From contig OZ037765.1 in assembly GCA_964035545.1 (NCBI GenBank), positions 24,422,504 to 24,486,503 on the forward strand: a stretch of 64,000 nucleotides of DNA. The letters run 5' to 3'. Of the stretch, positions 16,501-55,700 are shown piece after piece. Within the stretch, counting starts at the first letter, position 1, and every line of letters begins with the position of its first letter. Origin of the DNA: Bugula neritina. Lineage: Eukaryota; Bryozoa; Gymnolaemata; Cheilostomatida; Bugulidae. Made by a program: the position numbers and the translations under genes. Under the pieces are notes generated by a model. That model ran no database searches, was not told the DNA's origin, and worked only from the letters and a program-made list of their open reading frames with translations.

Positions 16501-19500
16501 CTAGCCACTGTAGCGGTGAGTTTGTTCAGCAATTCCCGTACAGTGTTTGTTTGGCCAAAGTGTGCCGCAACATGCAGTGCTGTAAACCCGCTGGTGCTAC
16601 TTGAGGTTGTGAGTTCCAACTTATCTTTGAGTACCTCTAGAACTTCAATGTGCCCATGTTTAGCAGCAAGGTGGAGCGGAGTCATGCCATCCTGTGGTTT
16701 TTAAATATTCCCACAAATAAAATATTGGCAATAAAACAATACTCATGTAAATCATAAACTAAACAGTATCACAAAATAATGCATGCTAATATATGTAAAT
16801 GGGGAAGCACTAAAAAATTGAATACTTACAGCATTTTCTTCTAAGGCATCGGCTCCAGAAGCTAAAAGCACACTGACCACATGATGGTGGCCTCCCTCAG
16901 CTGCCAGGTGTAAAGATGTAGATGCATTTGTCTGCATGAAACATTGGAAAGAAAGTAAGAACTTCCCCAGTAGCTCAGCAAAATAGCTTTCTAAACTACA
17001 ACTTGTAGATCTGTTCTAAAAACTTTTTCTTATTCATGACAAATAAAAAATGATCTACTGATGTGCTATAACAAATCATGCAAATACTGTAAACTTTATA
17101 ATCTTAATGATTCGCCTATCCTCAGACAAATTCAAGGGTACAAAATAAAACTTACACTGTTTTTTGCAGTGCAGATGACTGATTTGTTGAACTTCATAAG
17201 TTCTTTGATAACACCTACACACCCTTTAGAAGCAGCTATATGAGCGTAAGTCATTCCTTTCTAAAAGCAGTAATTCTGATGAGAGATTAAAGCATTGTAC
17301 ACACCCCTATGTTATAAGCAACATAATTATTATACTATAAATCTAGAAGTAGCAAACATGAAAAAAATTATTGGTTCTAAATTTAGAAGACTATCAACAA
17401 ATTATCATCTGTAAGAAAACAAATCATATAAGCACCAGTTTTGTATAAATTGCTTGAGAAAGCTATCAAATAATAATGAAGCATTATAGTATGGAAATTT
17501 GTCAGTTTAAACAGTTACATGCATAAGCTATAAAATATATGTTGATGTGAAATAATAACACATAATGTTTACTACATTCAGTACATGCCAATAATTGACA
17601 GTATGCTCACAACAACTTTGGATTTAATATGTACGTAAAGAAAAACATAGGCTATATTTAAATCAATGACAGATAATACTCTAAACTAAAAAGTAGCAAC
17701 GACAATTATGAGAAAATAACATAATATAAAATAATATGATTATAAACACTGAACTTACATTATCCTTTAAAAAGAAGAGAAAAAACTAATGTAAATAACA
17801 CACAGCATAAAAGCAAATAGTAGTATTCATAGTCAACATCATAACAGCATTAAAATGCTTCTAACAACTGTTTTTGTTAACAAGAATCAACTTGTAAGTT
17901 GGTAGTTATGCTTCATTGAACTTTTGCAATATGTAAAGATTGTACATGTAGTTGGTAACTGAGTTTTGAAAAAAAAATTGCTAATTAGGTTAAGTCTTGT
18001 GAGTATTGCAGCCAATGAGAGCAAACAAAATATATTGGCTACTTTTTATTGAATGAAAGACTATACAATTTGTAATTATATAAGTTATAACTTATAAGTA
18101 TTCAAGAGCTAATTTTCTAGGAGCAGACTATAATCTGAGGGCATTCTGCAACTGTTTCCAAGTGTGATGCATACTCTTTACATTGTATTTAAAACAGAAA
18201 AATATCTTCAGAGTGCTATATATCAAAATTTGTAATTGTCAACAAGCAGTTGCCCTTCCCCCCTTGCAATGCAGAGAAAGCACAACTATAAATCAAGATA
18301 CTTTGGATGTAATATAAAATAGATTGTAGGTGTGATGTGATATAGATGATAAGATAGTAGATATAAGAGAATGTACATAACAGAGTGTGTATAAAATGGA
18401 GTGTTTGAAAAGAGTGCATATGCAAGAGCGATGCGAGAGATAAAACGAGATTTCACATAAAAACTAAGAGGTAAGATTGTGAGAAGAGACTGTGTAGAAT
18501 ATGATTGCACTCATAAAGTGTTCAACCCGGTGGCCAGGATTGTGAATTACCTCCATACCTACTTAGAAGGCCTCTTGCTCCCAATACAGAATAAAATGGA
18601 AGTAGAGCAAGCAAAATATATTGATACACCAGCCCTTAGGCTCTATAGGAAAATAATAAAACCCAATGGATTGATAATTCAACATGCCAAGGGAGCCAGT
18701 AAATAATTTAAGTATCTATCAAATAATCATAATTGAAAAAAATACCAGTAAGCTTGCATGGCAGACACACAAAAACATGTTGATATTGGTATTACATGTA
18801 CAGGGAAACTAAATTGCTTTCAAATCACATTATTTAATGCAACTCAAATTTAAGTAACCTGAAATAATTTGCTAAAATTACTGGCCTACAATAGAGAAAA
18901 TAGTAAAAAAAAAAAGTAGGCTATGTGAATTGGATAATAAACAAATGCGCCAATCAAAAATAGTTTGCAGGTTGTGTCAAGAGAAATTAAATAAGTTTGC
19001 TGACGAGAGTGTTAAAAATATGATAGAGAGGTCTATAATAGCATATATATACATAACATACAGTGTTAGCCTTAGTGACCAAGCTAGAATCATGTTTAAG
19101 GAAGAGTTTGATGACGTCAGAATGATCATTTTCTGCTGCAAGGTGGAGAGGAGTTTGGCCATCCTACAAAATTAAATTTAAGGTTGTAAGTCAATGATTT
19201 TATATGCTGTTTATGGCAAAAGGAATCAATTACATCACATAAAACAGTGTAGGTCATCAAATTAATCTAATAAAATTTCATCAATCATCCTCACCTCATC
19301 AGGGGCATTTGCATCAGCACCCATATTAAGAAGGGTTGCACACACAGCTTTCTGGCCAGTTTCAGCAGCCATATGCATAGGCGTCTTTTTAGCCAGAGAG
19401 AGGGCATCAACTGCAGCTCCATGCTCCTCTACTAGCAGTTTGGCCAGTTTATTAAATCTGCAGTTTGTATGTAAAACAGTGATGCAATAAAACAATACAC

Positions 19501-22500
19501 GCACGCACACGCACGCACACGCACGCACACGCACGCACACGCACGCACACACACGCGCATGCACACACACACACATATTTATGTATGCACATATATGTAT
19601 GCATATATGATATATTGTATTTCCTGAAATTGAAATCTATAATATTTTCCACTGGTTTGCTGTTATTTAAAGCCCAAAATCATAAAAAATAGTATTAGCA
19701 TTTAAAATGCTATTACTTGAATGATTCAGATTTACATTAGTAGAACATAAGTTTTCAAACTAACCCATTCTGAGCAGCCAGGTGGAGAGGGGTCAGCCCT
19801 ATTTTAGATTTGGCATTAACAAATGCTTTGTGTAGAAGCAGCATGTTAGCAACTTCCAAGTTGCCACATTCCGCAGCAAGATGCAGTGCGGCTTTTCCAT
19901 GCTGTAAAACATAAATTGAAAACACAAACTAAATTGAAAAAATTTGTGATTATGAACATATTTTACTTTTTAGTTAGCTTGTTATGCTTTAATCAATGCA
20001 AATATATTTCTATGAAAACAACTACTAAGATTCTTGATAGAGAATATATTATTAAAAAATATTTATAGTCAGGTTTCTATTTACAAGACAAAGTTCAAAA
20101 TATATACTTTGAATTCTTATTTTTGTATAATATGCCCAAGAGAAGTTTTGCTTTTTTGACAATCTTTTTTTGAAAGTTGGTAATCTTTGGACAAAATCAA
20201 TACAAAAAACATGCTAAAAATATTATCTGACATAATTTTCACCATAATTTATAGTTTCATTGCATCCACTCATCGCAATTTTGAAACGAAAAGAACAATA
20301 AAATACTATGTTTAAAACTGCCATATATATTTTATATAGTCGTGAAAATATCGAAGTAATAATTTTTATCCCACTCGCATATAAATAGGCTCATAACTTA
20401 CCTCATCAAACACATCAACTCTTGCGTGATGCTGCAGCAGTACCTCGACAACCTTAAGGTGCCCTTCCTTGCTAGCCACCAGCAGTGGTGACCATCCATT
20501 ACGGGCTTGTTTGTTCAAAGCAATTTGAATCTTGCTAGGCTCTATGTGTTTAGCTACCTCGAGCAAAATGTCGGAATTACCTGCCCGTGCACAGTAGTGT
20601 ATAGGAGTTTCTAATGTCTAAAATTTATAAACAAGAATATGTAATACTAATATATCAGTCAGTAAACAAGTAGCCAAATGTAAAACTTCTACTCGTATCA
20701 AGAATCAAACTGCAGAACTTCAAATTGCATGATAGCATGCTACCCACTACACTCCAGGGGATACACCAAACATTATTTGCACTCGGCGTGATGCAGCATG
20801 GACTTCGCAGCATGAAGCTGTTGAGATGTGAATAATTCATTAGTATACTTACTAATTTGCAGCCTGCATTTGTGTCCCCTCCGTAATCTAACAGCAACTT
20901 CATAATATCAGTATCTTCAAAGTCATGATGAGCCTGACTTCGTAACAGCTCAGCAGCTAAATGTACAGTTGTTTCTCCTTCCTATGTTTAAGCATTAGGA
21001 GTAAATGCCATGTTTATTGGCATATGATAGAAAGAATAAGATAAATTATTGTATTAGGAACCTATGAAATATAATATACAATATATTAACATGCATTTTT
21101 TATTATACTTTAAATTAATTACTGTACTATTACCATTCATTTATAAATTATATATGCACTACCACATAACTTATTAATCTAAAGAGAAAAGAGCTTTCAA
21201 CTGATTAAAATTAAAATAAACCTCAATTTTTAAATTGATAGAGAGATAATACTTATTATACAGTCTCTAGCTTAGTTATAGAACCCAAGTACATTTTACA
21301 TCAGCAATGAAGCAATACATCTACAAGGACTACAACATTAACGAAACCTTACATATCACACTGTACACATGCATACCGCAGTAGCCTGGTTGACCAATAT
21401 GGTGGCATCAAATCTCGACTTGGTAACTGTCACATAGCGAAGTAGCTCCTCACAGACTGCCCAATGGCAGTATCTAACAGCCAAATGTAATGGAGTCTCT
21501 CCACTCTACAAAGTAACATAGACTCATAAACTGAGGCTGTAGTATTTACCACTAGCATTATAGGTAAAAAAAAATAGAATGAATGTTGACATCAGACTTT
21601 TTACTGCCTCTCCACACAAGAGAATTAGTTTTATAAAACAAACAGAAACATAAATGACATAAAATATGTCTTTTTTAATGCAGGTAATACTTACAGCTTT
21701 TTTAAAAGAAAGTTTATGCAAAAAAAGCACGTTTAGAAGAACAACAAGCAATATATCACATCAAACAAAGACATGATGCATGGCTAGTAAATAGGATGCA
21801 GCACGATATTACTGCAAGCGTCACCTTAGATGGCAGAGTGGGGTCACTAGACTCAGCAAGGAGGGATTTCACTACTTTCAAGTGACCGTGGCGAGAGGCA
21901 ATGTGCAATGCAGTTTCTCCGTTCTGATATAAAATACATGAACTTTTAATTCTATATATTCAAGAGATGAAATTAAATACGTAAAAATTTTTGGCTTATT
22001 TAAGCACTTTTTTAAATTATTGCTAATATGTTTCGCAGGAAAATTAAAATGTATAAAAGACTGCAATTCAACATACATCCATGTCATTGTTAACATCAGC
22101 GCCGCATCGAATCAGCATGTCTACACATTGCTCAGCTCCAGCTATCCGTGACGCAATGTGTAGAGGTGTCTCTTTACACTGCAACAAGAACAATTTATAT
22201 AACTTTGCAAGCATGCATTTAATTGCCATGAACTTATAACTTCAACAAACCTAAATCAGGTTTTTGGCACAATTAACTTGACAAACAATAAAAAATCCTT
22301 AGCAAAAGAACCCACCTTTCCTCCTTTTAATTCAACTTGTGCTCCATATCCTAAGAGAGTTTGAATGACTAAAGGCTGACATGCTTCCACGGCTATATGT
22401 AGTGAGGTGTATTGATCCTAGACATAGCAATACACTAATTATTCATGCTAAAAACTTTGCATAATAACTTGCATTTAATAAGACGTATTTCTTATTAAAT

Positions 22501-30185: not shown

Positions 30186-32807
30186 GTTTAGATTTCCTTG
30201 GGATTCTGCTAACTTTACACTAAAAATATAAAAAAAAACTACAGAGTGAGAGTAAGGGTGTTAATGTTCAAGGTTCAATATTGCTAATGATGGTTATCAT
30301 TGACTTAATATTGAAACTTGCTTCAACACTAATACCATAAAAATATTTGACTAATGTTTGTACACACAAATGAACTAACATTTTTATAACTAGAACTAGA
30401 GTGACCAATTAATTCAATTTCTATTATCTAAATTCTAAATTATTAATTGCATGGACTTCTTAGTGACTTGATTATTGCTTATAACCAATATTTATTGTCA
30501 ATATAAAAGAGTTACACTGATCGAAAAGAAATATTAATCCAACTTCAGTGTTGCTCAAAGAGTAGTATGAGCACCAGTAACTTTTATACCAACTTTGATT
30601 TACCAGAATTTTTAGTTTTCTTTTACTATCATCCAATTTTACAGCTAGTTATTACAGCTTATGTGAAGTCTAATGCTATAAGCCCAGTTAAGTTTATAGT
30701 TATAATCATAAAATTTTATCGTCATTATCATCGTGTTTGTGTTAAGCCTAAAAGTGAATATCAAAATGTATACTCCCAGCAATAGTTATAGTTGAAATTA
30801 AATGACCGACTTAAGACCGGTAAATGTCAATAGCAACACCACGGTGAAGTAATAATGTAGCAACTACAAAGGGATGAGTTGATTTAACTCTTGTCAATTT
30901 GAACTCTAACTTGTTTGCACGTCTTTGGTATATCACTTAATCTTATAATTATTATAACAAGTATAGATGTATTTATATTATAACTATGTTACTCACAAGT
31001 AATAAATTTAAATAACATGCTAACAGGCACAGCAGTACTAATAATAGTAGTAATATATATAACATCAGATTAAATAATAAATGGTATGATTAATGATAAC
31101 CATTCCATAAAAAATTAAATAAATTAAAATTACTCACAACTAGTAGTACAAGTACAAGTAGTCACGGAATAACTTATACTATAAATATAGCTTATACTAC
31201 AAATATAGTACTATGGGTTTAGTTTTATTATTATGATGGCTCAACTTGACTATAAATTAAAACGAATGATTATGAATTACTTACCCTCGGTCTTAAGAAC
31301 TTAAAAGTTAATGAGGGTAACACGGTAAACACAGTAAGTGTAACAGTAAAACTTAAATTGTAAAACTAAGAGTAGCCCTAAATGAAGCATTTTGATTTAG
31401 CTGGCACATAAGTCATAATGATAATCATGTGATATGGAAACATTAACTGAATGTTTTAACGACATAGAGTGAGTAAAACTAAATCAAAATGTAAGTGTAA
31501 CCTTAGCCTTAGGTACTACTAGACTAAGACTTAGTAGCAGTAATACTAATAGTAATACTAATAGTATTACTATTACATTTACCGATTTACGATTTAGTTT
31601 ACTGAAGTGAATACATTGACATAGTGATGATGTTTATTAGTATTACACTTACAATAATAATACAGCCACAAGACCAGGTACTACTACTACTAGTACTACT
31701 ACTACTCTAGTAGTAGTACTAGCACTAGTACTACTACTAGTACTAGCACTAATACTAATAGTAATAGTAATAATAGTAATACTACTACCACTACTACTAC
31801 TACTGTACTAGTACTACAGTACCAGTAGTACTAGAAGTAGTACTAGGTCTAGTACTAGTAGTACTGGTACTACGTCTATTAGTACGTCTACTTGTAGTAT
31901 TAGTAGTAGGTAGTACTAGTAGTAGTAGTACTACTACTACTACCACTACTCAGTACTAGTAGTAGTAGTACTACTACTACTACTAGTACTAGTACTAGTA
32001 CTAGTAGGATTTAGTATTACATTTACAGTATTAGTATTTGGCAATTAATTAATTACACAATTGTATTAGGATTATAAAAACATATTATTTTTAAATTGAA
32101 ATATATCTCCAAAACTAACTTTGAGTTAGATTAATACAACATTCTTAAGTAAATGATCAGGGAATAGCATACACAAATCAATTTTCCACTCAATGCATAT
32201 CATGTGACAGGATATGAACCTACGGGCTTGAAGAGGCTGTTTGGAGCATAGAATCAAAGGTAGGCGTGTCTAATTTTTCTGTAACCTTATAGTCTAAAAC
32301 CTTCATCAATGTTTTTATCTGATCGAACGAACTCTTGAAATATTGTTTTAAATTAAAAAATTAAAATTTATAAAAAACAAAGAATAAATTCCACTGTTTT
32401 AAATACGTCATTTTATATTCTAGTAGAATTTTAAACTTTAGAGTTTAGAGGCTAAAAACCACTCACTAGAATATTACTTTCAAAATCATGACTCAAGAAA
32501 TTTTAATTAGAAATTTTATGTAGTTTGCATAAAATTTAAAAATTCTTTTTAAAACTCTAGATGTTTTCACATTTAAAAATTTTGTTTAGGATTTGAGGTT
32601 AGCGATTAAAAACTAATGTAAACACGGAACTACTTTAGAAAGCAAAAGGAATTAATAAATTTATCGGGTTATCTTCTCCAAACAGTTACTTTTAACATAA
32701 CTGTTCTTTTGCAGGTAAACTTAGCTTTCACGTAAGGATCAATGCATACAATATTCTTGCCACAGCACTGACACAATCTGCCAGTATTAGTATAACTATA
32801 AATCACT
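30186..32807. other. Divergent intergenic region RNASEK / PLEKHF
   Basis: 2.6 kb between the RNASEK start (minus) and PLEKHF exon 1 (plus), so it contains both promoters. Apart from the triplet-repeat block at 31500-32030 I find AT-rich unique sequence without a convincing ORF or core promoter motif. Confidence 0.6.
31500..32030. repeat. ACT/AGT triplet block, self-complementary
   Basis: Runs of ACT and AGT triplets alternate in direction, for example TACTACTACTAG next to CTAGTAGTAGTA, so each run can pair with the next. It is densest at 31680-32010. The same triplets recur at 33160-33560, the flank into which the retrotransposon inserted. Confidence 0.9.
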
Positions 32808-35800
32808 ATGGCCGAGAGACTTGGTAGGTGTTCCTTCTAATTTTGCTAAAAGAAAAATGAAATAAAAACTGCGATTTCAAGATTATTTTGCGCATAAAAA
32901 GATTATTTGTCATTACTAGTCGATCAATATATTGGACTTGGTATTTGACTCTTGTGTATGCACTACTTCTGTCACTCACAGTCACTGTACTGAATTAAAT
33001 CCAATAACTGAATAAATATTAGTATAACTATAACAACTACAAATTCATAAAGTTAAACAAGTACCTCATTTTGAGACTGATGTTCAACTTGAACTTGAGA
33101 TTCATATTCATATTGATATTTATATTATTATTGTTGATAATATTAATCCTGAAACTCAAGCAGCTAAATAGTAACACTAGCACTAATAGAAATACTAGCA
33201 GTAGCGCTATTAAGTATGACTATAAGTATAATTATAACTATAAGGTACTGGTAGTGGTAGTACTAGTAGTAGTAGTGATACTTATACTTATAGATCTAGT
33301 TTAATATTATACTAATACTGATGGTAATACTACTATTAAGTATTAACAGTAACTCTAATGTCTAAACCTAATAATAGTAATACTAAGTCTAATACTAATA
33401 CTAATAGTAAGTTTGCTGCTTTGAAAATGACCCTTAAATTAAATAGATTATTGGCATAATAGCTAAATAAGCTATTGCTTTTTATTTTTAATTAGTAAAA
33501 ATAATACTGCTAGTAGTAGTACTACTAATAGTAATTGGCAGCTACTAATGTGATAGTTTTGTGGATTGTGAATGAAACTAGTGCTGTTACATGCTTGTAT
33601 GAGAAACAAGGCGAGAAATAAGGTAGAATGTAGATAATCTTTATTGTAGTATAGTCCGAGTGAATCAATGGTCTTTATCCAGCGAGCTCCAGTAGTAGAC
33701 TGAACTATACTGGAACTCGCTGGCTTTTATATACATGCAGGACAAAGACATTCCTTTGTTTGCCGAGATCGGAGACCCGAAATACCGAATATCGGCATTT
33801 CGGGGATCCGAAACGCCGAATCCGGCATTTCGGTACTTCGGTATTCCGATATGCCGAGAATCGGCATATCGGTGTTTCGGAGGACCGAAGTACCGATCTC
33901 GGCAACAAAGGACACACACACACAACATAAATTTACCACACACACCCCCCATCGGAAAGCATGCTTTCCGATAAAGAGGCGTACACAACACAAACACACA
34001 ACAGGGAATGACACGACAATAAAACACACAGTTGAAAGTAACACACGAAAAAAAAATATGGTAAACATGCAGTGATAGTAATAATACAATGATAACACAC
34101 AAAAAAAACAGGGAAGATTTGTGCACACACAAAAAAACAGAGCATGAATAGGTACATGCATTACATGAAGAACTTACACATAAACAAACAAAGAATAAGA
34201 GTAGAAAAGAAAAGAAAAACTATACAAATAGTCTCAGCGGCGGTCGCCAGATCGACCCCGCTCCAGGCGGCTAACTCGTCTCCGGAGTTGCCCCAGCTCC
34301 TCTTCATATCTGCGGAGCTGCCGGCGTAACTGGTGAACCTCCTCTGCCAACTGAGCTGACGTCTGGTGCCTAGGGCGGTCGGTAGTACCACGGGCAGGAC
34401 GTCGCTGGCGGTGCGTCTGCTTCTCGCCCGCCGCCGAGGGTCGGGGGCCCAGGTCCGATGAATCGGCCCTGGCACCTGATCCGACCCGTGCCAGCATGAC
34501 CCGAAGTGGCTGGGTGGCTGCCGGTTGGGGTGTCGCGGCGGGCTCCCCTTCTTCCTCCCGAACAGGCCTACACGCGGGGAATCCCAGGGCGAGAGCAGCC
34601 CGTTTGTGGGGATCCGCCACGTGTGGCAGCACCAGGTCCCGAAATTCGGGAAAGGAGGCCTGGTCTACAGCAAACGTGTAGCCCGTGTGGCAGTGAGCTA
34701 TGCGCTGATGTCTCAACACATAGTCTCTCTGGTAGGAGAACTCCCCACACGGGCAAAACACGTTGATGTAATGCTGAGGGGCGTGTACGCGCAACCGCCG
34801 TGCAGAGGAGAATTTCCTCTTACACTCATGGCAGATGCGGTTGCCCGGCTCACCGCAAGCATCACCAATTTTTAGGTTGGTGGGTCCAGTCACCCAATAC
34901 TGGCGGGCGACCAGGGCCCGAGGCAGGGCCAGTATTGGGGAGGCATCTTCTTCTGCTGGCAGGTGGTCGCCGTGTAGGATGCCCTGCTCCTCCCCGGCCG
35001 TGAGCTGAAGCTCGACCGGTTTGGGGTCAGGGCCAACCATGGCGGAACACACCTCTGTGGAGGAGGTGGCGGCCTGCTGGCTGGTAGAAGCCGAAGCAAG
35101 GCCCGGTGGGGGAGGGGAGTCGGACCGACTGGCCTCCTCAACGTCCATTCGCTCCTCTAGAATAGATAGTAGAGGCTGTGAGAAGCCGGTCTCACTATCG
35201 CCGAAATTCGGCACAGGTGTGAATGGAGATAAGTTAAAAACCGAGGGCCGAGGTGTATCGCAGAAATTGACTGAGCCTACATCGTGATTCAACAATGTAT
35301 CAATGGCAGAGTCATCTCCGAGATCCATCTCGGCCTCCGGTCCTAAGATATCAGAACCAAGTAAATCTAGTAAAGACCAGTCTACTGTAGTTTGATTAGA
35401 CTCCGCAACTGGAGGATCTAATCTAGACGAAATACCTGATTGTGTATCTGGTAGAGTGATCCCCATAGCCGCTGATAGCGTACGGAGAATAGTGGTAAAA
35501 TCAAAATGAGTATTAGAATCAGAATTTAGTTTGAGTTGCAACTGCCGTGCGAGCTGTGTGAAGTCAGAATGAGAAATGGCCGAACCTCGTGCTTCAGAAG
35601 TTTTACCTGCTGAAGCCCGAGTCGCGTGGCCCGTGGGAATTTCCCCCGGATTTCGAGAAGACAACTCGCGTGATCGAGTGTCTTCCGAAATTCGGTCGGC
35701 CATTTCTTCTTCTTGGTGGAATTCTCCGGGGTGATGGAGGGAATTTCCAACCAAGATGGGGTGGCAGTCAGTGTGGGGGGGTCTTCCTCAGGAGGGGGCC

Positions 35801-38800
35801 CCTCCAGGTGTCCTACAGCATAGTCTGCCAGGTATCTGGGAGGTCTTCTTGGCCGCTGGCTCCTCTCAAGTGGAACAGACTCTGGTGGTGTTGGTGGCTC
35901 CTGGGCTACCCTGGTAGGGGGGTCCCCGTCTTCACCCCGTACGGGGGTGGGGGTGTCCTCCCCCGGAAAGGGTTGTGAGCCAAGGGCTTGCTGCTGTTCC
36001 TGCTCCCGCTCCGCTCTCTGCTGTCGCTCCAGCTGCTCTATCAGGGCGGCTTGCTCCTGGTCTGCCTCCCTGGGGACCATGATCTCCACCTCACGGGGCC
36101 GGGTGGCCCGTCCACGACGGTTGGGCTGACGGTGGGGCTCCAAGAGGGGTGGAGCCTGACCCACCGCGTCTGGGCTGGCATGGTAAGGTTTGAGGCGCTG
36201 CTCGCTCTGGACAGAGACCTGCCCAGAGCGCTCCACACGGTATGTGTGGTTGGGCAGCACCTCTACTACGCAGTAGGGGCCGACGAACTTGGGCTGAAGC
36301 TTAGCCGACTGTCCACGCCGCCTACGGTAACTCACCATCCAGACCCAGTCTCCCACTTGGTACAACGGGGGCTCCTCTGAGTCCTCGGTGCGGGTCTGCC
36401 ACTGCTGGGTGCGCAGCGCATCATGAGCTTTGCCCATGATGTCCATCAGACCCTCCACATATTCGTGTACCGGTGACTCGGGGGCAGGAACATGGTACGT
36501 CAGGTGTTCCGGGACCCGCGTCTCCCGGCCTAACATCAGGAAGTTTGGGGTCTCCTGCGTGGCGGAGTGTGGTGTGCTGCGGTAAGCCCGCATGATCTGC
36601 GGCAGCACCACGTCCCATTCTTCCTGACCTCGACCAAGCAGCAGGCTCCGGAGCGCGTCACCCAACATCCTGTTGTTCCGCTCGACGACTCCGTTCCCTT
36701 GCGGGTGATATGGGGTGGTCCGACTCTGGTTCACCCCCCATATCCGGCAGAGGTCTCCCATGAGCTGGGACTGGAACTGGGCACCCTGGTCTGTATGTAT
36801 CTGCTCGGGCAAACCGAGGTAACAGAATACATGTTGGTCCAGGGTCCGGGCCACCGTGGGGGCGGTGGCGTCTGGAATAGCCAGAGCATCTGCCCACCGG
36901 GTAAAGTGGTCCGTGAGCATCAGTATCCAGTTGTTTCCTCTGGCGGATAACGGCATAGGCCCGACGAGGTCTACCGCCACTACTTGCCACGGTCGACCAG
37001 CGTACAGCCGGCGTCGACCAGTGGTTTCCGTGGGGCGGCCATGCTTGCTAGCTTGGCAGACCTCGCATTGCCGTACCCGCAGTCGTACGTCCCGAGTCAT
37101 TCCGGGCCAATACCAACGCAGCCGCAGACACCTGATGACCCGACTGACTCCAGCATGAGCCTGCTTATGGGTGTCCCAGATCAGTTCCCGCCGGAGGGCG
37201 CGTGGACAGACGACGCGGTCCCTCTTCTGCTGGCGGTTGTCTGCTGCTAACGTTATCATCAGGAGGCCATCAGGACTGACCTTGAGGGCATCCCAGCGAC
37301 GACAGAGGAGTTGGAACTCAACGTCTCCCTGCCGCTGCTGTTCCTCGCTAGGTCGTCGGCCCTCATTCTTGGCCTGGAAGATGTCCGCTACCGCGCCGGG
37401 TAGCGTCTCCTGGAGTCGGCACAGCTCCTTGACGTTCTGGTGCAGAGTAGGGTTGGCGTGGAGCGCCTGGACACCGTCCTGGTGGGTTTCGGTCCGAAGA
37501 TGGCCGTGCTCCCACCGGTAGGCGGTGCCCTCCACTAGCTCTGTTTCCACGTCAAGGCGAGCGGGTCCCCCGTCCCGCTGTTCGATGTGCAGGCATTGCT
37601 TACAGTCCTCTACCGGCCGGCGGCTCATGCCGTCGGCGTTCCCATGCTTCCGGCCTGCACGGTGCTCTATACGGTAAGAGAACTCGGCAAGAATCTCTAG
37701 CCAACGAGCTACCTGGCTCGAGGGCTCTGCACGTTTACACAGCCATATCAGTGATGCATGGTCTGTTCGCAAACGGAACGATTTCCCATACAGATATGGC
37801 CGAAAGTGCTTGACCGCCTTGACTACTGCTAGGAGTTCCTTCCTAGTGGTGCAGTAGTTCTTCTCGGCGGCCGCGAGAGTCTTGCTATAGTAAGCCACGA
37901 CCACCTCACTTCCACCCTGGACTTGAGACAGGACGGCTCCCACGCTGTGGTCGCTGGCGTCGGTGTCCAGGATGTACTCCTTGGCTGGATCAGGATACGC
38001 CAGGATTGGCGCTTCCATTAGCCGTTGCTTGAGGTGGTCGAATGCCTGCTGCTCCTCCTGTGTCCACTGCCACCGGACTCCCTTGGCGGTCAGCCGATTT
38101 AACGGCTGAGCCACTCCTGCGAAACCAGGTATGTACTGCCGGTAGTACCCTACGAGGCCCAGGAATGCACGCAACTCAGGGAGGTCGCGGGGAACAGTCC
38201 ACTCCTTCACAGCTTGTACCTTCTCTGGATCGGTAGCGACCCCATCACGGCCAACCACATGGCCCAGGTATGTGACTTCTGGCTGCAGGAGTGCGCACTT
38301 GGAGGGCTTCAGCTTCAGTCCGGCTGCCCGGAGACGGTCAAAGACCTCCCGCAGACGACTGACATGAGTCGAGAAGTCTGGGGAGATGACAATGACATCG
38401 TCCAGATAGATGAGGAGGGTCTTCCAGTGTAACCCACTGAGGACTTGCTCCATGAGCCGTTGGAATGTTGCCGGAGCGGACGTTAGTCCGAATGGCAGTA
38501 CTTTCCACTTCCAGAGCCCGTCGCGAGTAATGAATGCTGCTTTGTCCTGGGCATCAGGACTGAGGGGCACTTGCCAGTACCCGCTAAGCAGATCCAAAGT
38601 ACTGAAGTACTTGCTACCCGCGAGGGCATCTAGAGACTCATCTATCCGTGGGAGAGGGTAGGCGTCCTGGATGGTGGCGTTGTTGAGTCTGCGGTAGTCT
38701 ACGCAGAATCTCCAGCTACCATCCTTCTTCTTGACCAAGACCACTGGGGAGCTCCACGCACCGTGGGCAGGCTCAATCAGATCCCGGTCCAGAAGATCCT

Positions 38801-41800
38801 GTACCTGTCGGCTCACCTCCTTCTCCTTCTCCGGGCCCAGACGTCGGGTAGGCTGCCTGATGGGAGTGGTGTCGGCTGCCAGGGGTATCTCGTGAGAGAT
38901 AACCTTAGTCAGCCCCATGTCTCTATCGCCACGACTAAAGACATCACTGTACTCCGCGAGTAGTTGAGCCAGTACTTGGCGTTCAGTACTACTCGTACAG
39001 TTTCCGCATGCTCCGTCATACAGGTCAGCCAGATGCTCCGGGACTGCTTCTCGTCTGGTGTGAGGGGGGGTTTCCCTGGTTGTCGGCCACTGTCTCCAGT
39101 GCCGGACCCACATCCGCTTCCTGGATGGAGTGGTACTTCCCCACCAGCGCTCCAGCCGATAGTTGGACAGGTTCCGTGAAGGGGTTGATGCACTGCACGA
39201 GGAGCTCTTGCCGACAATCTAGCCGATTCAGGCTGTTTGCTAGTCGGATGGCTCCGTGCGTTCCTTCAACCATCCCCAGGCCGGCGATCCCCTTGCAGTT
39301 GACTCTACATCGGAGAGTCGCCTGGGACCTCCCCGGAACTGTGCAGTCCCGTACTACCTGGACTCCGCCCACCAAGGGCCTGCCAAACTTGTCAACACAG
39401 ACAAGTTCCTTCCCAGCCATCACCACCACTGACTTCTGGAAATCCATGTGGCACTGGTGTTTCTCCAGGAAGGGCATTCCCAAGATGGCGTCCTCCTTCA
39501 GCTGGCTGACGATAAACGTCTCGTGAACTGCTTGATCACGGACGCGTCCAGGTAGTGAGATGACGCCGTAGAAAGGAATGCATGATCCGTCCGCCAACGT
39601 ACCATGCGCACCTTCATACGGCTCGAGGCTCGCCCGCTCTCGTGCACCAAGGGTGTCAAAGAGACGCCTACTCAGCAGGTTGGTAGTGCACCCAGTATCC
39701 AGTAGGAATGTGGCAGCTTTACCCGAAATCTTTCCGGGCAGGAAGTAGCTGCTTCCATACGGCTGGGTGCTCCTGGAGCGGTCAGTCTCTGGGGGAGACA
39801 CGACTTGGGTCCGCACAGCGGGCCTCCTCTTCGTCTTAGAGACAACGGGGGTTTTCTGAGGTCGGGAGGGTAGCTTGGGATACTCTTGCGAGTAAGCTGA
39901 ATCCTCCTCCACAACCTCCTCGGGCAACCCCGCGAACCGGTTACGGAGTGGCCAGGCTGGAGGATCGGGTAGACCTTGCGGCCTCCGAGATCTCCGAGGT
40001 GCCTGCCATCCGGTTTCTTCTAGTTCCATCCGGGTATCGAGTGGCAGGGCAGGAGGATCGGGTAGGCCTTTCGGTCTCCGAGATCTCCGGTTTGCGTGCC
40101 ACTCGATATAGGTCGACTCTGGAGAGGTCTCTTCTACTGTCTTCCGAGTCCTATCCCGGACCGGATTGGCATGGGGCCCACGGGTGGCGGAATTCACCGT
40201 GAGCCTCGGGTGTTTAAAGGCTTCTGTCCCTTAGGGCAGTGCCTTCTCACATGTCCTGGCATCCCGCACTCCCAGCAAGTGGGCATAGGGGGGCGGACAG
40301 GGTCGTCCCGCGAGCGGGGAGCCCGCCTGTCCGTCTGGTTGCGCTGCAACTCCGTCACTGTAGCCTGCAGGCCTTTCATCATGCTCATCAGCATGTTGAG
40401 CTGCGTCTGCTCAGGTGACGGGGTAGCTGCTGCTGCCACTTGTGGGGTTGGGGGTATCTCTTCTGCATCTCCGGCCACCTGGCGAGCTGCGTAGTTCGCC
40501 CTCCGTGGCTCTTCCACCTGGAAGTAGGCCTTCCCCATCTCTAGTGCTTCGTCCAGGCTCTTGACTTTTGCGGCTAGCCAGTACCGCTGGAGGTCCGGGT
40601 GGTTCACACTCCGGAAGAACGCGTTAAAAACGAGGCGCTTCCGATCGTCGCCAGTGGCGTGACCGAAAGCAGCCTGAGCCAGGCGCTCTACCTCGTTAGC
40701 GTGATCTTCCAGAGATGTCCTTCGGTCTCTCCTCATCACTTGTAGCTGGTCTGACGCCTCTTCCGTGGTCAACCCGAACCGGGCCCTAAGAGCCCGCAGG
40801 ATGTGGGCTTCGTCGGGTCCCAGTGCGAAGTTCCTGGCCCGGCCTGTCAGACAGGCCCGGAGTTGGAGGACGCGCACCCGTACTGGCCATTCAGCGGTGG
40901 CGGCCACGTCCTCGAACTCCTTGATGAACTGTTCCACGTCTCCATCTCCTCCGAAAGTCGGGGGCTGGAGGCGATACCTGTCACCAGGTGCTGCCTGTCC
41001 TTGCCCCCGCAATCCCTGGAGGGCTGTGACCAGCGCCTCAATAGTGAGGGCTGGTGGTGCTGCTGCCTCAGGGGCTGGGTCCCCTGGGGCCATCCTATTT
41101 CTCTTAGCAACTAGCTATTCGTAGAATCCCACCGCTGCCACCAATGTGATAGTTTTGTGGATTGTGAATGAAACTAGTGCTGTTACATGCTTGTATGAGA
41201 AACAAGGCGAGAAATAAGGTAGAATGTAGATAATCTTTATTGTAGTATAGTCCGAGTGAATCAATGGTCTTTATCCAGCGAGCTCCAGTAGTAGACTGAA
41301 CTATACTGGAACTCGCTGGCTTTTATATACATGCAGGACAAAGACATTCCTTTGTTTGCCGAGATCGGAGACCCGAAATACCGAATATCGGCATTTCGGG
41401 GATCCGAAACGCCGAATCCGGCATTTCGGTACTTCGGTATTCCGATATGCCGAGAATCGGCATATCGGTGTTTCGGAGGACCGAAGTACCGATCTCGGCA
41501 ACAAAGGACACACACACACAACATAAATTTACCACACTAAGTCTAAAAGTATCTACGTTAGTAGTAGGTGATAATAGTAGTCTAATGGTTATTTTGAAAC
41601 TGAATCACACTCACAATGGCAATACCAATAGACATGTTAATGAAACTTTATAATTATAATAATATTACTAATGCTTAATTATTTGATAATATTATTTTAA
41701 TAATAGTATTAATAGTTATGGTATTTAAACTTGTTAGTGGTATGGTTTTATTATATATTTAAATAGTAGTTTTTATAGGGTAATGATTCATAAAATGAAA

Positions 41801-47324: not shown

Positions 47325-50300
47325 ATGGCTCGTGGTCTTCTTGCTGATGACTATTTAGGTAAGGATGAATAACTTCTATATAAAAAAACTTTTTAATTTA
47401 AAGTTTTTAAGCTTATAAGATTAAATTGCAACATTATACTTAAATTTTAAAGATAGCTTTTACATTTTCTTGTACCTTTATCATGTGACATTTTGGTTTA
47501 ATATGTCTACCTGAAAGAACAAAAATATGTATGTGGTACTTTTATGTTAGTTAGAAAAAATAGTTACGAGTGTCATGTATGTAATGTATGTATGTATGTA
47601 ATTAATGGCATGCAAGTGATATATTGTATATTTTTCCAGCATATCACAACATACTGACATATATAGAAGATGCTACAGCTCAATTGCTACGATATAGAGC
47701 TGATATTCAAGCAAAAATAGATGTTAACAAGTTTTTTGCTAGCTAGTAAGTTTTCAGTTGGTTTTTTCGTATTCAGAAATATTGTGTTTTAAACCATTAA
47801 TAATACGTTTTATTGTGTACTCATATAATATGTCGTCAATAGCACAGAAAAATTTTATTCCATGAATAATCAGCGAAATAATTTTTAGAGTTTTTGGGTA
47901 AACAAATTAATATAATACAAATGTTTTTTTGTCCAACATGGCGTTTCTATTGAAATATTTGTTTTTAAATATAGATCTCCATCAATAGAAAATTATAATA
48001 TTTTGTGCTAAGGATTTTCAACTTTACAGCAACAAATCTTTACTGCCATGTTTTTAAATAATCACAAAAGCATCAAGAGTGTTTTTTTTACCAGTTTGTG
48101 GACTGACTGTATAATTATTTAAATATACACCTGTAAACCAAATATATTTGTTACAAAACAAGGTGCTAATTTTTAAAATTTTAATTGCTGATTTTATTTA
48201 AATTAACAAAGTCTAAATGTCATTAAGAAACGTGTTGCATTGAGTCAGCTGTTGTTTAACTTATATTTTAGTTTTACATGTTTAAAAGAGGGGAAGCATG
48301 CAATTTTTCGAGAATTTGAATTTATCAACTCAACTCCATATAACAGAGCTTGCTTTGTTGACACATTTCACAAATGCTTTGCTGCATTAGGAAAGAAAGG
48401 AGGTTGGTAGCGGACTTATTATTGCTAGATTTTTTGAAACAATGTGTAGTAGATTTGTGGGTTATAGAATGAAATCAGGCAGAGAACATAACTCCTTGTT
48501 ATAGAAGAGACAAGAGAGAGAGGTTGCCGTGTGCTTGCAGTACTCTATTATAGTAGAGAGAAGTGTCCAGTGTGAGCTCCAGTCCGCAAGTGACTGAAGC
48601 TCTAAAATGCGTGTCCTTTTATACTGGTAGAACAAAGGACCTCTAGAACCTTCCACCGACAGCGGGCCGATGTTCGGCAGGGGATACCGACATTCGTCAT
48701 GTCGGTAACCGACACTGGAAATATCGGTAACCGACATTCGGTCTGCCTGCATCCACCTGCCGAAATCGGTCCAACTGTCGGTTTACATGAATCAACAAAA
48801 ATGAACCCAACCAAGTGTATGCGTATTGTAACTTGTAATTGGGGGAAAGGGGATTAACTATTTACTATGTTAAAAGCTCAACATTAGCCATAGTGTTTAA
48901 GGTATTAGAAAGTTACGCTACATAATTAGCTATGATTACAGTATTTAGAAAAATAGCCATAAGTAAAGTGTCAAGGGGGATAACTCTTAATATTTACCAC
49001 AAATGTTTGTTGCTGATATATTTTGACAAAAAGGTAATTTGTATATGTTAAACTCAGATTTACTGGCTTAGCCTTTCTGCAAATTCACTGGTAACTTTTT
49101 AGATTTATTTTCATCTATTCTATGTCTTTGGTTCAGCTTTTAACAAAGTATAGAATCATTTCAACATAGATGAAGCTATTTTCATTTATAATTAGAATGT
49201 TTTTTTAAGTGAGCTTGGTCATGTTTATATATAATCTATACATAATATACTTGCACATTGTATGATTTGTTTACAGATTTGCTGGCTATAAGGGACTATT
49301 ATGCTTTAGTCTCTGTATTATGCAGTGATTTTCCATATGAGATGCTTCAGAAAACAGCAAAGATAGTACTCATTGACGATGCCCACGATTGCCTAATATC
49401 ATTTACAGACTTTCTTTATTCTTTTCAACTGCAACTGTATTATCAAGGTAATTCCAAATATTTCATAACATGGTTTTTTAAATCATATGCTTTCATGATA
49501 AGTCCATTATCTGTTGATCAGTTTTTCCCTGCTATTCAGCAAAGGCTTATGATGTATGCAAAAATACATATTATTATGTGGTGCTGATAAATGGTCTTAA
49601 ATGTAAATACAGTATGCATTGAATAACAATCTTTGTTTCCCAAACCTTTGCAATTTTATTGTGAAATTTTGTGTTCCACAGTTTATTGTGTCTTTATTTC
49701 ACAGAGTTCTTGGAAGCTTCTAGCAATACGTACCAGTCGTTACTCACTGAGAGCCACAGCCCACGAGATATTGTTGTCCCTACTGATCACACTACACAAG
49801 TTCATAAGGAGAAACAATTACCAAGCAATTCTACTCTTACAGCTACAGAAGGAGTTGATAGCATGAAATTTTACAAATCACTCAGTCAGCTGATAGATAA
49901 ATACCGATTTAGGTAATTTATATTCTTGTACATGCTTTTCAACCTCAAAACTCTCACAAAACATGAAAGCTACAGGTAAGGTGGAACTAACAGCTACTGT
50001 GTAGAAGTTTCAGAGATACATCTTATTACACACTAAAATATGATGATGTAATAATATTTTATACAGAAAAGTTTAGTATATTTACCTTGTTTGCAGTATC
50101 ACATTACCACTTGCTCTAAGCTAACAAATGTGCAATATGAACAATAACTATATTTTATGTTTCATATTGAAATGTATAAAGATACTGATGACAAACCAAC
50201 TGAAATTTGTTTTTTCATACGAATAATTTAAACTCCATTTTATTAACTTTCCAGCATACCTTCATTAGCAACTCTGAAAGAAATTCTTTCAGCTAGTCCT

Positions 50301-52790: not shown

Positions 52791-55700
52791 TCAATATTTG
52801 CCATGTTTGATCTTATTCTTCTTAGATTGAATTGCATCATACACAGGATTGTGGCTACCACACACACTGTAATAGAAAAAGAAAGGAAAATGAGGTAATA
52901 AGCTTCTGACTGCACACAGTTTACAAGTAGTGGCCTAATCAAGAACCTAATAATAGCTGCCGATGATAGTGTCAAAAATTATCACAAAACGAACAGTGCT
53001 TTAATATAAATGCGAAAAACTTCTCCGATATTGAAATTCCAGATAAAAAATCACGAACATACTATTACAAATTAACTAACTGCATGTAAATAATAAAAGC
53101 AACTACATAACTGTTACATGCATAAGCATGGCCAGTACTCTAACTCTTCAACAGTGCATCAAGAAAAACTACAATGTCAAACAATAACTATAACAAAACA
53201 ATTATATGAAAATGCTGACAGCGGATAATTCCATGCCAACAACAATCAAAATGAGCACAAATTTTACAAACTTGGTCCGACAAACAGCACAAACTAAACA
53301 CACAGTAAAGCAACCGCAAATATCACTCAGCAAACTCATAAGATGAGGTAAATCGAGTATATAATCACATTCTAGCACAGTTAGCAGAAGAAAGTGGTGA
53401 AAGTAGGCATGGTGTTAGAGAAACAAATGTTATTGATAGAAATATTAGCTGGCAATGTTGATAGCCTAGAACATGAACATGATAATTACCATGCAGTGAC
53501 TTTGGAAGTTATCATGTACCAGTCAGCGTCCTAAATTGAACACATTCAATAAACATTGAGGAAAAGGAAGTAATGCATGAAAGAAAGAGCAAAATGGCAA
53601 ATATTGTAAAATTGTACATGATAAAAAACAAGAAGAATTATTGATTTGTACAGCTGGGATTGGTAAAGTGTGAATCATAAGTCTTACTTAATGCATTTAA
53701 TCCAGTCTTCCATTTCAGCAGCAGAGGCAGCAGACATCTTGTAGACGTTATGTCGTCCCTCCATCACCTTCCCACTCTTCTTATCCGTCTTGCACGCCTT
53801 GATGCAATCTGTGTGGAGACCAAAGAGCTCAAAGCAATGAGCTCTAGACTGCTCTTCAGCACACTCTCGTACACTTAGACTCTCCAAAGGTATGATGCCC
53901 CGAGGCTCCTTATCCTAGTAATGGCAAGTAACATATTTTTCATATATAAGAGTATCTTTACTTGCATTGGTCTAGGGCAGTCATGAGCCTTTTGAGCTGG
54001 TAAATGTGGCCTTTTGGTAAAAATAAAAAAATAGTTTAGTTTCAATCCTTTCTGAATTTTGCTTTTTACTAATTCCCAAGTTTACTATATGAATCATGGC
54101 TGCTAGCACATATTATTGTGAACAGCTATTCTCTCAAATGGGGTATGCCAAAAGCAAATTTAGATTGAGGCCAACAGACTCCTATTTGACCGATATCCTT
54201 CAGAGATCGGCATCGGACATTGAGCCAAATTGTCAAACCATACTGTGCTCTGTTCAACGTATAAAATATGCTTACTTTCCTGAACAAATCAATTTATTCT
54301 CCTGGATCTTTTTTCATAACAAAATAAAAGCATATCAAATTCGAAAATAGGCTTTAAATAATAATAGATAGAGGGTTTTGACAGTGAAATTGAGACTGAA
54401 CTTTCTAGTGGCCTTGTTGGTGGCTCAGGTTTTTTTTAACGGCCTTTTCCCAAAAAAGGTTGAGCACCCATGGTCTAGGGATTAGACTTTACAGTATTGG
54501 TTTAGTAAACATCAAGTCATGGGTTCAAACCCCATTAAAGGCCATTGGTGATGTTAGGAAGAGCATCCAGTCATATTTGCTCCTGCGCCACATTTTAGAC
54601 CAATTTAAAAACCTCTTCCATCAGGTGTTCTTACAAGGATAGCATTTAATTAGAGAAATATTGAGGAGGTTAGCTCACCGCAGTATACTCAAAGTAATAG
54701 AGGCATTTCCCACTCAGTATAAACCACCTTCTCTTCCAGCTCCTATACCGGCCACCTGTAAAACACATTATTTGGTATACTAAAGCATTGCATAGAGGTC
54801 ACGTGTTGTAAAATATATTAGCTGGTATTTTAGAAGCTTTGTTCTAGCAGCTCTAAAATACTTCAATTTCACATAGTATTCTTACCAGCATAAAATCTTG
54901 ATACAATGTCATGATAGTTGATTTTAAGTGATATAAATCCCAAATAATTAAATTAAATTAAATTAATTACAAACTTGATGAATAAACTTCCAAGCTTGAG
55001 GCTTGGAATATCTCCAAATTTGAATTGCTTCTCACTTTATTTTAAAGAGAAAAGTTCTAAATTAAAAACCTACCTTGCTTCCAGAGCCAGCCCTCCTTGT
55101 CCGGGTTGAAAAAAGTATTATTTAGATCATTCCCATCATCTTCTGGTATCTTGAATGGCTCCTTCTTGATAGAATCATATATACTCTACAAATAACAAAA
55201 TTGACAGAATCATCAGTAATTTACTGAGAAGTTGCAGCTTAAATTTTGAGACAAAACAAAATAATTGAAGTTGAGAATCAGCTGCTGTTCTACAACCTTA
55301 GCTTTTGTTATTTTTCCTCAAATTCTGGTGAGGAGGAAGATAGTAGTAATAAACTCTGTCAAAATAAATATAAACTTTTCTACAAACCTCTAGCAGTTCT
55401 CTAGGCAGATCTCCGCCATCATTGATGCCTCGATTCATGCTAACAAACTGCTCAATGTCTGGCTTATTCTTAACGCTAGGATTGTGCAGGCTGGTATTCA
55501 GCATTATAATGGAGAAGGCCAGGACGTAGCACGTATCTACAAAGTGTAAACAGTTAATGCTACAAATTGCAAAACAAAATGATAGTAAAGGACTAAAGCA
55601 GCCATTAACAAAAATACTATCTATAAGTTTCACAATAGTCTAGTGACTACTGTATGTAAGCTATAAATAATTAGACAGTTTGAAAGATATGATCATCAAG

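What the first reader, a model, noticed from the sequence alone, without database searches (positions are those of the whole stretch)
33549..41536. Retrotransposon that may encode its own transcription regulator (ORF3 plus U3 operator-like array)
Seen: a third ORF of 489 residues after pol with two C2H2-type fingers, an acidic hydrophobic stretch and a C-terminal coiled coil, in an element whose U3 is an array of CCGA/TCGG tetramers just upstream of the TATA box. Known: gypsy elements with a third ORF usually carry env, not a finger/coiled-coil protein. Inference: ORF3 dimerises and binds the array to activate, repress or protect the element, giving a self-regulating retroelement. An alternative is that ORF3 is an RNA-binding or nuclear-import accessory protein.
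Basis: partly seen in the sequence, partly recalled or inferred. Interest (0 to 1): 0.85.

Follow-up and report, generated by a model that had tools for sequence, protein, structure and literature searches.

The report
Retroelement zinc-finger protein and promoter array
A family of animal jumping genes carries a conserved but unnamed zinc-finger protein module at the end of its enzyme gene and, in several of its branches, a ladder of one short DNA word in its own promoter; the two may form a self-control circuit, but nobody has shown that they touch.

Summary
A young Gypsy element (33549-41536, minus strand; identical 392-bp LTRs, TSD TTAG) carries a 489-codon ORF3, with 18 CCGA/TCGG tetramers in 140 bp upstream of its TATA box. 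Two things change the reading. (1) ORF3 is not a true third ORF: 27 of 90 genome match rows lie in frames of at least 1,600 codons, so elsewhere ORF3 is the C-terminus of Pro-Pol; the window copy's frame is broken. A ~95-residue finger core follows integrase in 35 of 120 listed Pol relatives and is under purifying selection (dN/dS 0-0.20, 14 pairs). (2) The array is constrained as DNA: among F1 copies 6 of 72 tetramer sites vary against 20 of 68 spacer sites (non-CpG tetramer sites 0 of 36). Stem-pair changes show no sign of RNA-structure selection. Best reading: the module binds U3 and controls the LTR, in the manner of plant VANC anti-silencing proteins. Binding was not tested. Against: finger-bearing F4 lacks the CCGA array; finger-less relatives (N1-N3, S) keep it; another finger-less family (N1703) has neither. 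Rivals are integrase tethering, a host factor on the array, and RNA binding.

The parts
41145..41536 (-). 5' LTR (392 bp, TG...CA; TSD TTAG at 41537-41540)
33549..33940 (-). 3' LTR, identical to the 5' LTR; TSD TTAG at 33545-33548
41359..41498 (-). CCGA/TCGG array in U3 of the 5' LTR (18 tetramers)
33763..33902 (-). CCGA/TCGG array in U3 of the 3' LTR (18 tetramers)
41321..41329 (-). TATA box of the 5' LTR; Inr-like TTCAGTC at 41294-41300 (label recalled), AATAAA at 41236-41241
41128..41144 (-). primer binding site TTGGTGGCAGCGGTGGG directly after the 5' LTR (label recalled)
40194..41093 (-). gag (299 aa, one CCHC knuckle, E 0.017, below the Pfam cut-off)
40212..40218 (-). TTTAAAC heptamer in the gag/pro overlap, a classical -1 ribosomal slip site (recalled)
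39025..40230 (-). protease frame, stop to stop
35526..39113 (-). pol frame from its first ATG: RT, RNase H, integrase, GPY motif
34234..35703 (-). ORF3 (489 aa); in other copies of this genome in a long frame with Pro-Pol
35290..35385 (-). acidic/hydrophobic stretch, residues 107-138
34579..34938 (-). finger core, residues 256-375
34771..34833 (-). finger 1, C2H2, residues 291-311
34690..34755 (-). finger 2, C-x-C-x12-H-x5-C, residues 317-338
34249..34365 (-). C-terminal arginine-rich predicted helix/coiled coil, residues 447-485
33951..33972 (-). 22-nt palindrome ATCGGAAAGCATGCTTTCCGAT just before the polypurine tract (33945-33950)
48443..48794 (-). solo LTR of a related, finger-less subfamily (S), TSD TTGT, 12 CCGA/TCGG

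Best explanation
ORF3 is the C-terminal module of the Pro-Pol polyprotein of a branch of animal Gypsy elements: a long, probably disordered acidic region, a two-finger core and a coiled coil (shown by sequence, conservation and frame). The U3 array is a DNA element read tetramer by tetramer (shown as constraint in F1 and F2). The inferred step is that the module, as a coiled-coil dimer, binds CCGA/TCGG half-sites in the element's own U3 and keeps the LTR active or protects it from CpG-methylation silencing. Finger-less relatives that keep the array would be served in trans. A finger-less family that has neither fingers nor array is consistent with the pair belonging together.
For: Core in 35 of 120 listed Pol relatives, and in 34 of the 39 whose tail after integrase is 350 aa or longer (recounted, because the printed bins leave out one tail over 1000). 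Six zinc-ligand positions invariant in 40 of 40 aligned rows, out of 60 sequences with the core. dN/dS of the core 0-0.20 in 14 pairs. CCGA/TCGG is the most enriched tetramer upstream of TATA in 7 of 8 LTRs, 0 of 500 shuffles each. Tetramers conserved and spacers variable in F1 (6 of 72 vs 20 of 68 sites, p 0.002; substitutions 6 vs 79; non-CpG tetramer sites 0 of 36), and in F2 plus N3 (1 of 44 vs 8 of 46, p 0.03; both LTRs of three elements). The array pattern is genome-wide: 315+291 matches vs 1+2 for the reversed pattern. Pieces of family N1703/N1836 show no array, and no ORF3 match lies beside those copies. Host CpG observed/expected is 0.39 against 0.74 in the element body, so CpG silencing is plausible.
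Against: No binding data. F4 has the fingers but 0 CCGA/TCGG in the 226 nt first tested; in the 175 nt upstream of its TATA it has one TCGG by eye and only a weak GCGA excess (7 vs 3.0; 4 of 500). N1, N2, N3 and S keep the array without fingers, and N1's LTRs are identical over the 427 bp compared, so it moved recently. In finger-less S the tetramers are not more conserved by site (8 of 48 vs 13 of 78, p 1.0). The closest listed Pol relative, P0029 (74% over 991 aa), has no finger core. The one BEL control LTR has 3 CCGA/TCGG against 0.7 expected (6 of 300 shuffles), a slight excess of its own. The finger helices hardly change among array-bearing subfamilies, so co-variation cannot be shown. 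A Pol-level product is an unusual way to make a transcription regulator.
Confidence: 0.4

Rival explanations
1. Integrase tether: the module stays joined to, or close to, integrase and guides integration or nuclear entry by binding DNA or chromatin, as a chromodomain does in chromoviruses. The U3 array is then a separate feature bound by something else.
For: In frame with and after integrase in 35 of 120 listed Pol relatives; in long frames in 27 of 90 match rows of this genome. The helix residues of the fingers are conserved among the array-bearing subfamilies, as for one common target. Element Gypsy_Ds1 of an ostracod has a 250-aa C-terminal extension with a coiled coil that its authors thought might serve integrase contacts (PMC7998251, passages).
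Against: The stretch between integrase and the fingers is long (hundreds of residues) and mostly low-confidence in the model. It does not explain why the tetramers are conserved. No target-site survey was made.
Confidence: 0.25
2. Host factor on the array: the CCGA/TCGG ladder is an enhancer, insulator or CpG island read by a host protein, and ORF3 is unrelated to it.
For: Finger-less N1, N2, N3 and S keep the array. F4 keeps fingers without the CCGA array. Arrays of host zinc-finger sites in a Gypsy element are known (the Su(Hw) insulator of Drosophila gypsy; recalled).
Against: N1-N3 and S are kin of finger-bearing elements and may be served in trans. Another finger-less family, N1703/N1836, has no array. 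Whether host genes carry such arrays was not examined.
Confidence: 0.2
3. RNA accessory protein: ORF3 binds the genomic RNA, whose U3 can fold into a very stable hairpin, and serves export or packaging (as Rev/Rex, or CERV of Cer1).
For: Array RNA folds far better than dinucleotide shuffles in the element (-94.5 kcal/mol, z -13.7) and in the solo LTR (-84.2, z -9.5), and better than shuffles that keep the tetramers (sense z -6.1 and -7.0, antisense -3.7 and -4.7). The predicted coiled coil is arginine-rich.
Against: Among F1 copies stem changes are 9 A-C, 7 G-U, 3 other mismatches, 3 one-sided changes that give a Watson-Crick pair, and only 1 double compensatory change. The tetramers are conserved in sequence, not in pairing. 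Any two-sided array of a tetramer and its complement folds well. Rfam gives no match at gathering scores.
Confidence: 0.1
4. Ordinary captured coding sequence without a selected function in the element.
For: Elements with the finger-less C-terminus multiply well: 69 matches, 13 of them in 1,703-codon frames.
Against: dN/dS of the core 0-0.20 and the spread of the core in Pol relatives.
Confidence: 0.03

Closest known systems
VANC anti-silencing proteins of Arabidopsis VANDAL transposons (PMC5735166, abstract and outline read; PMC10398659, listing only)
   Same: An element-encoded protein; targets that often form tandem repeats and vary between related elements; a methylating host (here inferred).
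   Different: Plant DNA transposons; no sequence comparison with VANC was made here. Binding and methylation loss are shown there. Here nothing is shown beyond sequence, and the protein is a Pol extension of an LTR element.
C-terminal coiled-coil extension of Gypsy_Ds1, ostracod Darwinula stevensoni (PMC7998251, passages read)
   Same: About 250 aa beyond the integrase of a Gypsy element, with a coiled coil.
   Different: The passages read mention no fingers in this extension; its authors discuss a spike-like origin and, as an alternative, integrase contacts. I did not compare the sequences.
CERV of the C. elegans Gypsy/Ty3 element Cer1 (PMC10309623, abstract and passages read)
   Different: Made from a spliced mRNA and needed for genomic-RNA export; no C2H2 pair or LTR array was reported in what I read.
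Chromodomain at the integrase C-terminus of chromoviruses (recalled)
   Same: An accessory chromatin-facing domain after integrase.
   Different: A different domain and a much shorter tail; no chromodomain was found here by Pfam.
ORF3s of bdelloid rotifer LTR elements (PMC5408684, passages read)
   Same: Non-env third ORFs in Gypsy-like elements.
   Different: Those are GDSL esterases, DEDDy exonucleases, or env-like and transmembrane proteins in the passages read.
Su(Hw) insulator array of Drosophila gypsy; retroviral transactivators such as foamy virus Tas (both recalled)
   Same: An array of zinc-finger sites in a retroelement; an element-encoded activator of its own LTR.
   Different: Su(Hw) is a host protein; Tas is not a finger protein fused to Pol.

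Membership tests
Gypsy (Ty3) LTR retrotransposon | Paired LTRs with TG...CA ends, TSD, PBS and PPT | tested here: met
Gypsy (Ty3) LTR retrotransposon | Order protease, RT, RNase H, integrase with GPY/F motif | tested here: met
Errantivirus-like Gypsy with env | Third ORF encoding an envelope protein | tested here: not met
   ORF3 has fingers and a coiled coil; Pfam gives no env family. No separate transmembrane prediction was run.
Chromovirus | Chromodomain after integrase | tested here: not met
   no chromodomain in Pol or ORF3 at E up to 1
C2H2 zinc-finger protein | Curated Pfam zf-C2H2 score and conserved C2H2 ligands | tested here: inconclusive
   score below cut-off, but C291, C294, H307, H311, C319 and H332 invariant in 40 of 40 rows
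VANC-like anti-silencing system | Element-encoded protein binds repeats in its own element and removes methylation | not testable with these tools
   array constraint shown; binding and methylation not measured
VANC-like anti-silencing system | Protein and target motif change together between related elements | tested here: inconclusive
   one subfamily, F4, differs in both motif and helix residues; the array-bearing ones change little in either
Rev/Rex/CERV-like RNA-export system | Structured RNA target kept by compensatory change | tested here: not met
   1 double compensatory event against 12 pair-breaking events (9 A-C and 3 other)

The most novel reading that the evidence does not exclude
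A branch of animal Gypsy elements carries a self-recognition circuit: a Pol-encoded dimeric two-finger protein reads a ladder of CpG-bearing CCGA/TCGG half-sites in the element's own U3 and lifts silencing or drives transcription. Finger-less derivatives live on it in trans, and at least one family that does without the protein does without the ladder too. It would be an animal retroelement counterpart of the plant VANC system.
Probability: 0.33. Interest if true: 0.85.

Novelty: new variant of a known kind. Interest (0 to 1): 0.6.

Why it matters
The finger core is a repeated extension of Gypsy Pol (35 of 120 listed relatives). The Pfam lists of those 120 name no C2H2 family, ORF3's own Pfam matches stay below cut-off, and my paper searches did not find it described. 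With the array it makes an old question testable in one genome: whether retroelements of animals encode sequence-specific regulators of their own LTRs. Subfamilies with and without fingers and with and without the array sit side by side, so simple binding and reporter tests can settle it.

Tried and rejected
RNA hairpin as the selected object: first attractive (G-T against A-C mismatches 3:0), then not supported by pair changes among copies. Independent third ORF made by splicing or its own start: not needed, since other copies have it in a long frame. Recently captured host gene: not supported by the spread among Pol relatives. Known fold: Foldseek gave no match with E at or below 0.001; PDB sequence matches are to generic fingers (best Sal-like protein 3, E 1.7e-4); the full-length model is poor (mean pLDDT 49), the core fair (78). 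Scans of viral contigs and genome contigs gave no relative of the query. The period-7.65 regularity of the element's array is not significant in the solo LTR.

Rows and failures: of 13 elements whose LTR pieces I compared, an LTR pair was found in 8, plus one spurious 70-bp match (F1c); 4 gave none. I used one LTR per subfamily and left out F2_C1_3.8 and F4_C2_12.6 as near duplicates; F1b's match ends at 302 bp. The 8 LTRs are six of these plus the window LTR and the solo LTR. In one search F4 was first cut at a wrong TATA; one search uses the later one. In one search two of the 22 copies are partial (L003, L019). Of 60 sequences with the core, 40 were aligned (ORF3, 35 Pol relatives, 4 of the 28 ORF3 homologues). 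Only 120 of 364 Pol hits are listed; 117 of them show the integrase end. The first control pieces missed the LTRs. One LTR of a BEL-type element (Peptidase_A17 match) was then obtained by a 452-bp match whose ends I did not check, while the second control gave only an 81-bp match; so the negative control is a single LTR. S was looked at in 4 pieces and N in one piece set each. For N1704 and N1703b the true TATA was not placed. Pieces L061-L063 were fetched and not analysed. Array presence on contig C1 was read by eye; one search lists C1 only as far as 34.97 Mb.
Full report
What is there. The window is 64 kb of an animal-like genome (about 32% GC outside the element; exons of a TRP-like channel and others, by eye) and lies in an unnamed 215.8-Mb assembly. 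At 33549-41536 on the minus strand is a GC-rich Gypsy element with two identical 392-bp LTRs, 4-bp TSD TTAG, a primer binding site and a polypurine tract. It encodes gag with one knuckle, protease, RT-RNase H-integrase, and the 489-codon ORF3. Identical LTRs say that the insertion is recent.

ORF3 is the tail of Pol. A protein search gave 11, and a profile search 28, relatives of ORF3 (sources jgi, lgn and ena). Three of them (P0006, P0008, P0028) run, by eye, from the typical Pol tail into ORF3 without a break. A search with the window's integrase region listed 120 of 364 Pol proteins. A profile seeded only on ORF3 relatives found 59 sequences in its first pass over ORF3 and the 148 proteins, and 60 in the end. 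Of the 120 Pol proteins 35 have the finger core, each after integrase; of the 39 with a tail of 350 residues or more, 34 have it. The closest in Pol, P0029, has not. In the host genome 27 of 90 ORF3 match rows lie in an open frame of 1,600 codons or more, 20 of them of 1,981-1,998, and fetched pieces of F3, F4, C2_1.08, C3_6.89 and C5_13.85 show the Pol-tail motif in the ORF3 frame. So the element is gag plus a Pro-Pol-ORF3 frame. In the window copy that frame is broken at the pro/pol and pol/ORF3 borders; an assembly error cannot be excluded, and copies with an open frame exist.

The module. Forty aligned cores keep C291, C294, H307, H311, C319 and H332 in 40 of 40 rows, C317 in 34, T275 in 36, D347 in 33 and D327 in 31. 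Pfam finds only sub-threshold C2H2 matches in ORF3. AlphaFold gives a fair core model (pLDDT 78) and a C-terminal helix, with a low-confidence N-terminal half; no known fold is matched at E up to 0.001. dN/dS over 14 pairs is 0-0.20 in the core, 0.10-0.47 in the C-terminal part and 0.32-0.75 in the N-terminal part; the most distant pairs are saturated at synonymous sites.

The array. In the element, CCGA/TCGG occurs 18 times in 140 bp as a ladder mostly of 7-8 bp with paired orientations, ending some 30 bp before TATA. LTRs of other subfamilies were fetched in pieces. CCGA/TCGG is the most enriched tetramer of the 175 nt upstream of TATA (171 in the solo LTR) in 7 of 8 LTRs (F1, F1b, F2, F2b, F2c, F3, S), with 0 of 500 shuffles reaching the count in each. 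In F2 it takes the form of six CCGAnnnTCGG dyads. ORF3 identity to the window is about 57% for F2 and 45% for F3. Genome-wide the motif CCGAn4CCGAn3TCGG has 315+291 matches against 1+2 for the reversed pattern; paired dyads, a palindromic pattern, have 138 sites, each counted on both strands, against 0.

DNA or RNA? Array RNA folds extremely well, also against shuffles that keep the tetramers, so I first took an RNA element seriously. Twenty-two F1 copies (16 distinct rows) speak against it. Tetramer sites vary at 6 of 72, spacer sites at 20 of 68 (Fisher p 0.002); substitutions are 6 against 79; tetramer sites outside the CpG vary at 0 of 36. Stem-pair changes are 9 A-C, 7 G-U, 3 other mismatches, 3 one-sided changes to Watson-Crick and 1 double compensatory. 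The word is kept, not the pairing. F2 with N3 agrees (1 of 44 vs 8 of 46, p 0.03; 4 distinct rows); S does not by site (8 of 48 vs 13 of 78, p 1.0; substitutions 9 vs 27; non-CpG tetramer sites 1 of 24; 12 distinct rows). Copies share descent, so these p-values are only a guide.

Does the array go with the fingers? Finger-bearing F1, F1b, F2, F2b, F2c and F3 have it; finger-bearing F4 (38% identity) does not, having at most a weak GCGA excess with one GCGAnnnTCGC dyad. F4's fingers differ from the window's at few helix positions, by eye A to H and V to I in finger 1 and R to K in finger 2. This is one event and proves nothing. Finger-less relatives fall in two groups. N1 (Pol 92%, gag 82% identical to the window element over the pieces compared), N2 and N3 carry an alternative C-terminus and keep 14, 15 and 10 tetramers. 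Four S pieces show no core match, and S4 keeps 12 tetramers. Two pieces of the finger-less N1703 type and one of N1836 have no cluster (densest windows 1, 1 and 0; fold z 0.1 for N1703a and 0.2 for N1836), and N1704 shows none either (densest 1). On contig C1, by eye, an array pattern lies beside 10 of 10 F1/F2-class ORF3 copies, 0 of 1 F3-like, 0 of 5 F4-like and 3 of 9 copies with the alternative C-terminus. A BEL-type LTR of the same genome has 3 CCGA/TCGG against 0.7 expected (6 of 300 shuffles) and fold z -1.2. The link is therefore a tendency within one clade, not a rule.

Mechanism. Shown: a conserved Pol C-terminal finger/coiled-coil module under selection, and a U3 word array under sequence constraint. 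Inferred: that the first binds the second. The host window is CpG-depleted (observed/expected 0.39 against 0.74 in the element body), hence probably methylating; every tetramer carries a CpG. That makes an anti-silencing role of the VANC kind, or methylation-sensitive activation, the most attractive version. Integrase tethering is the main rival, because the module sits in frame after integrase.

Literature. Searches of the held library found no description of this module. The nearest are the coiled-coil extension of Gypsy_Ds1 (PMC7998251, passages), bdelloid ORF3s (PMC5408684, passages), CERV of Cer1 (PMC10309623, passages and abstract) and VANC (PMC5735166, abstract and outline; PMC10398659, listing). 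Passages of PMC2836005 (Ginger transposons) and PMC6338049 (accessory domains) were also seen and held nothing closer. Most subscription papers and Repbase are not in that library, so the family may be annotated elsewhere.

Noticed in passing
48443-48794: Solo LTR of the finger-less S subfamily with TSD TTGT; 42 matches in the genome (two of them short), several in pairs about 7 kb apart.
   Followed up: yes
33951-33972: 22-nt palindrome with TCGG/CCGA directly before the polypurine tract; kept or nearly so in F1b, F2, F2b and F2c and degenerate in F3.
   Followed up: partly
L084 (N1), L087 (N2), L090 (N3): Alternative finger-less Pol C-terminus (about 60 aa, ends ...ILDRCTEEIESLVHHLQ in N1/N2); 69 matches in the genome, 13 of them in 1,703-codon frames.
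   Followed up: partly
31500-33540: Long stretch of TAC/TAG trinucleotide repeats beside the insertion; the TSD lies at its edge.
   Followed up: no
11229-12683: Intronless-looking 484-codon ion-channel ORF (Pfam Ion_trans) with ankyrin-like frames at 13955-20981; looks TRPN/NOMPC-like by eye.
   Followed up: no
55298-56086 and 61725-63239: Exons that look, by eye only, like an Arf-GEF (Sec7) and a ubiquitin hydrolase.
   Followed up: no
window outside the element: CpG observed/expected 0.39, so the host probably methylates CpG; the element body has 0.74.
   Followed up: partly
33893-33912 and 33752-33772: The array is bounded by a 20/21-nt inverted repeat (TCCTTTGTTGCCGAGATCGG ... CCGATCTCGGCAAACAAAGGA) holding CTTTGT words that resemble HMG/SOX sites (recalled).
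   Followed up: no
G000:C2:22723773-22724753: One ORF3 match is reported in an 'open frame' of 63,007 codons, probably an artefact of a withheld or masked stretch.
   Followed up: no
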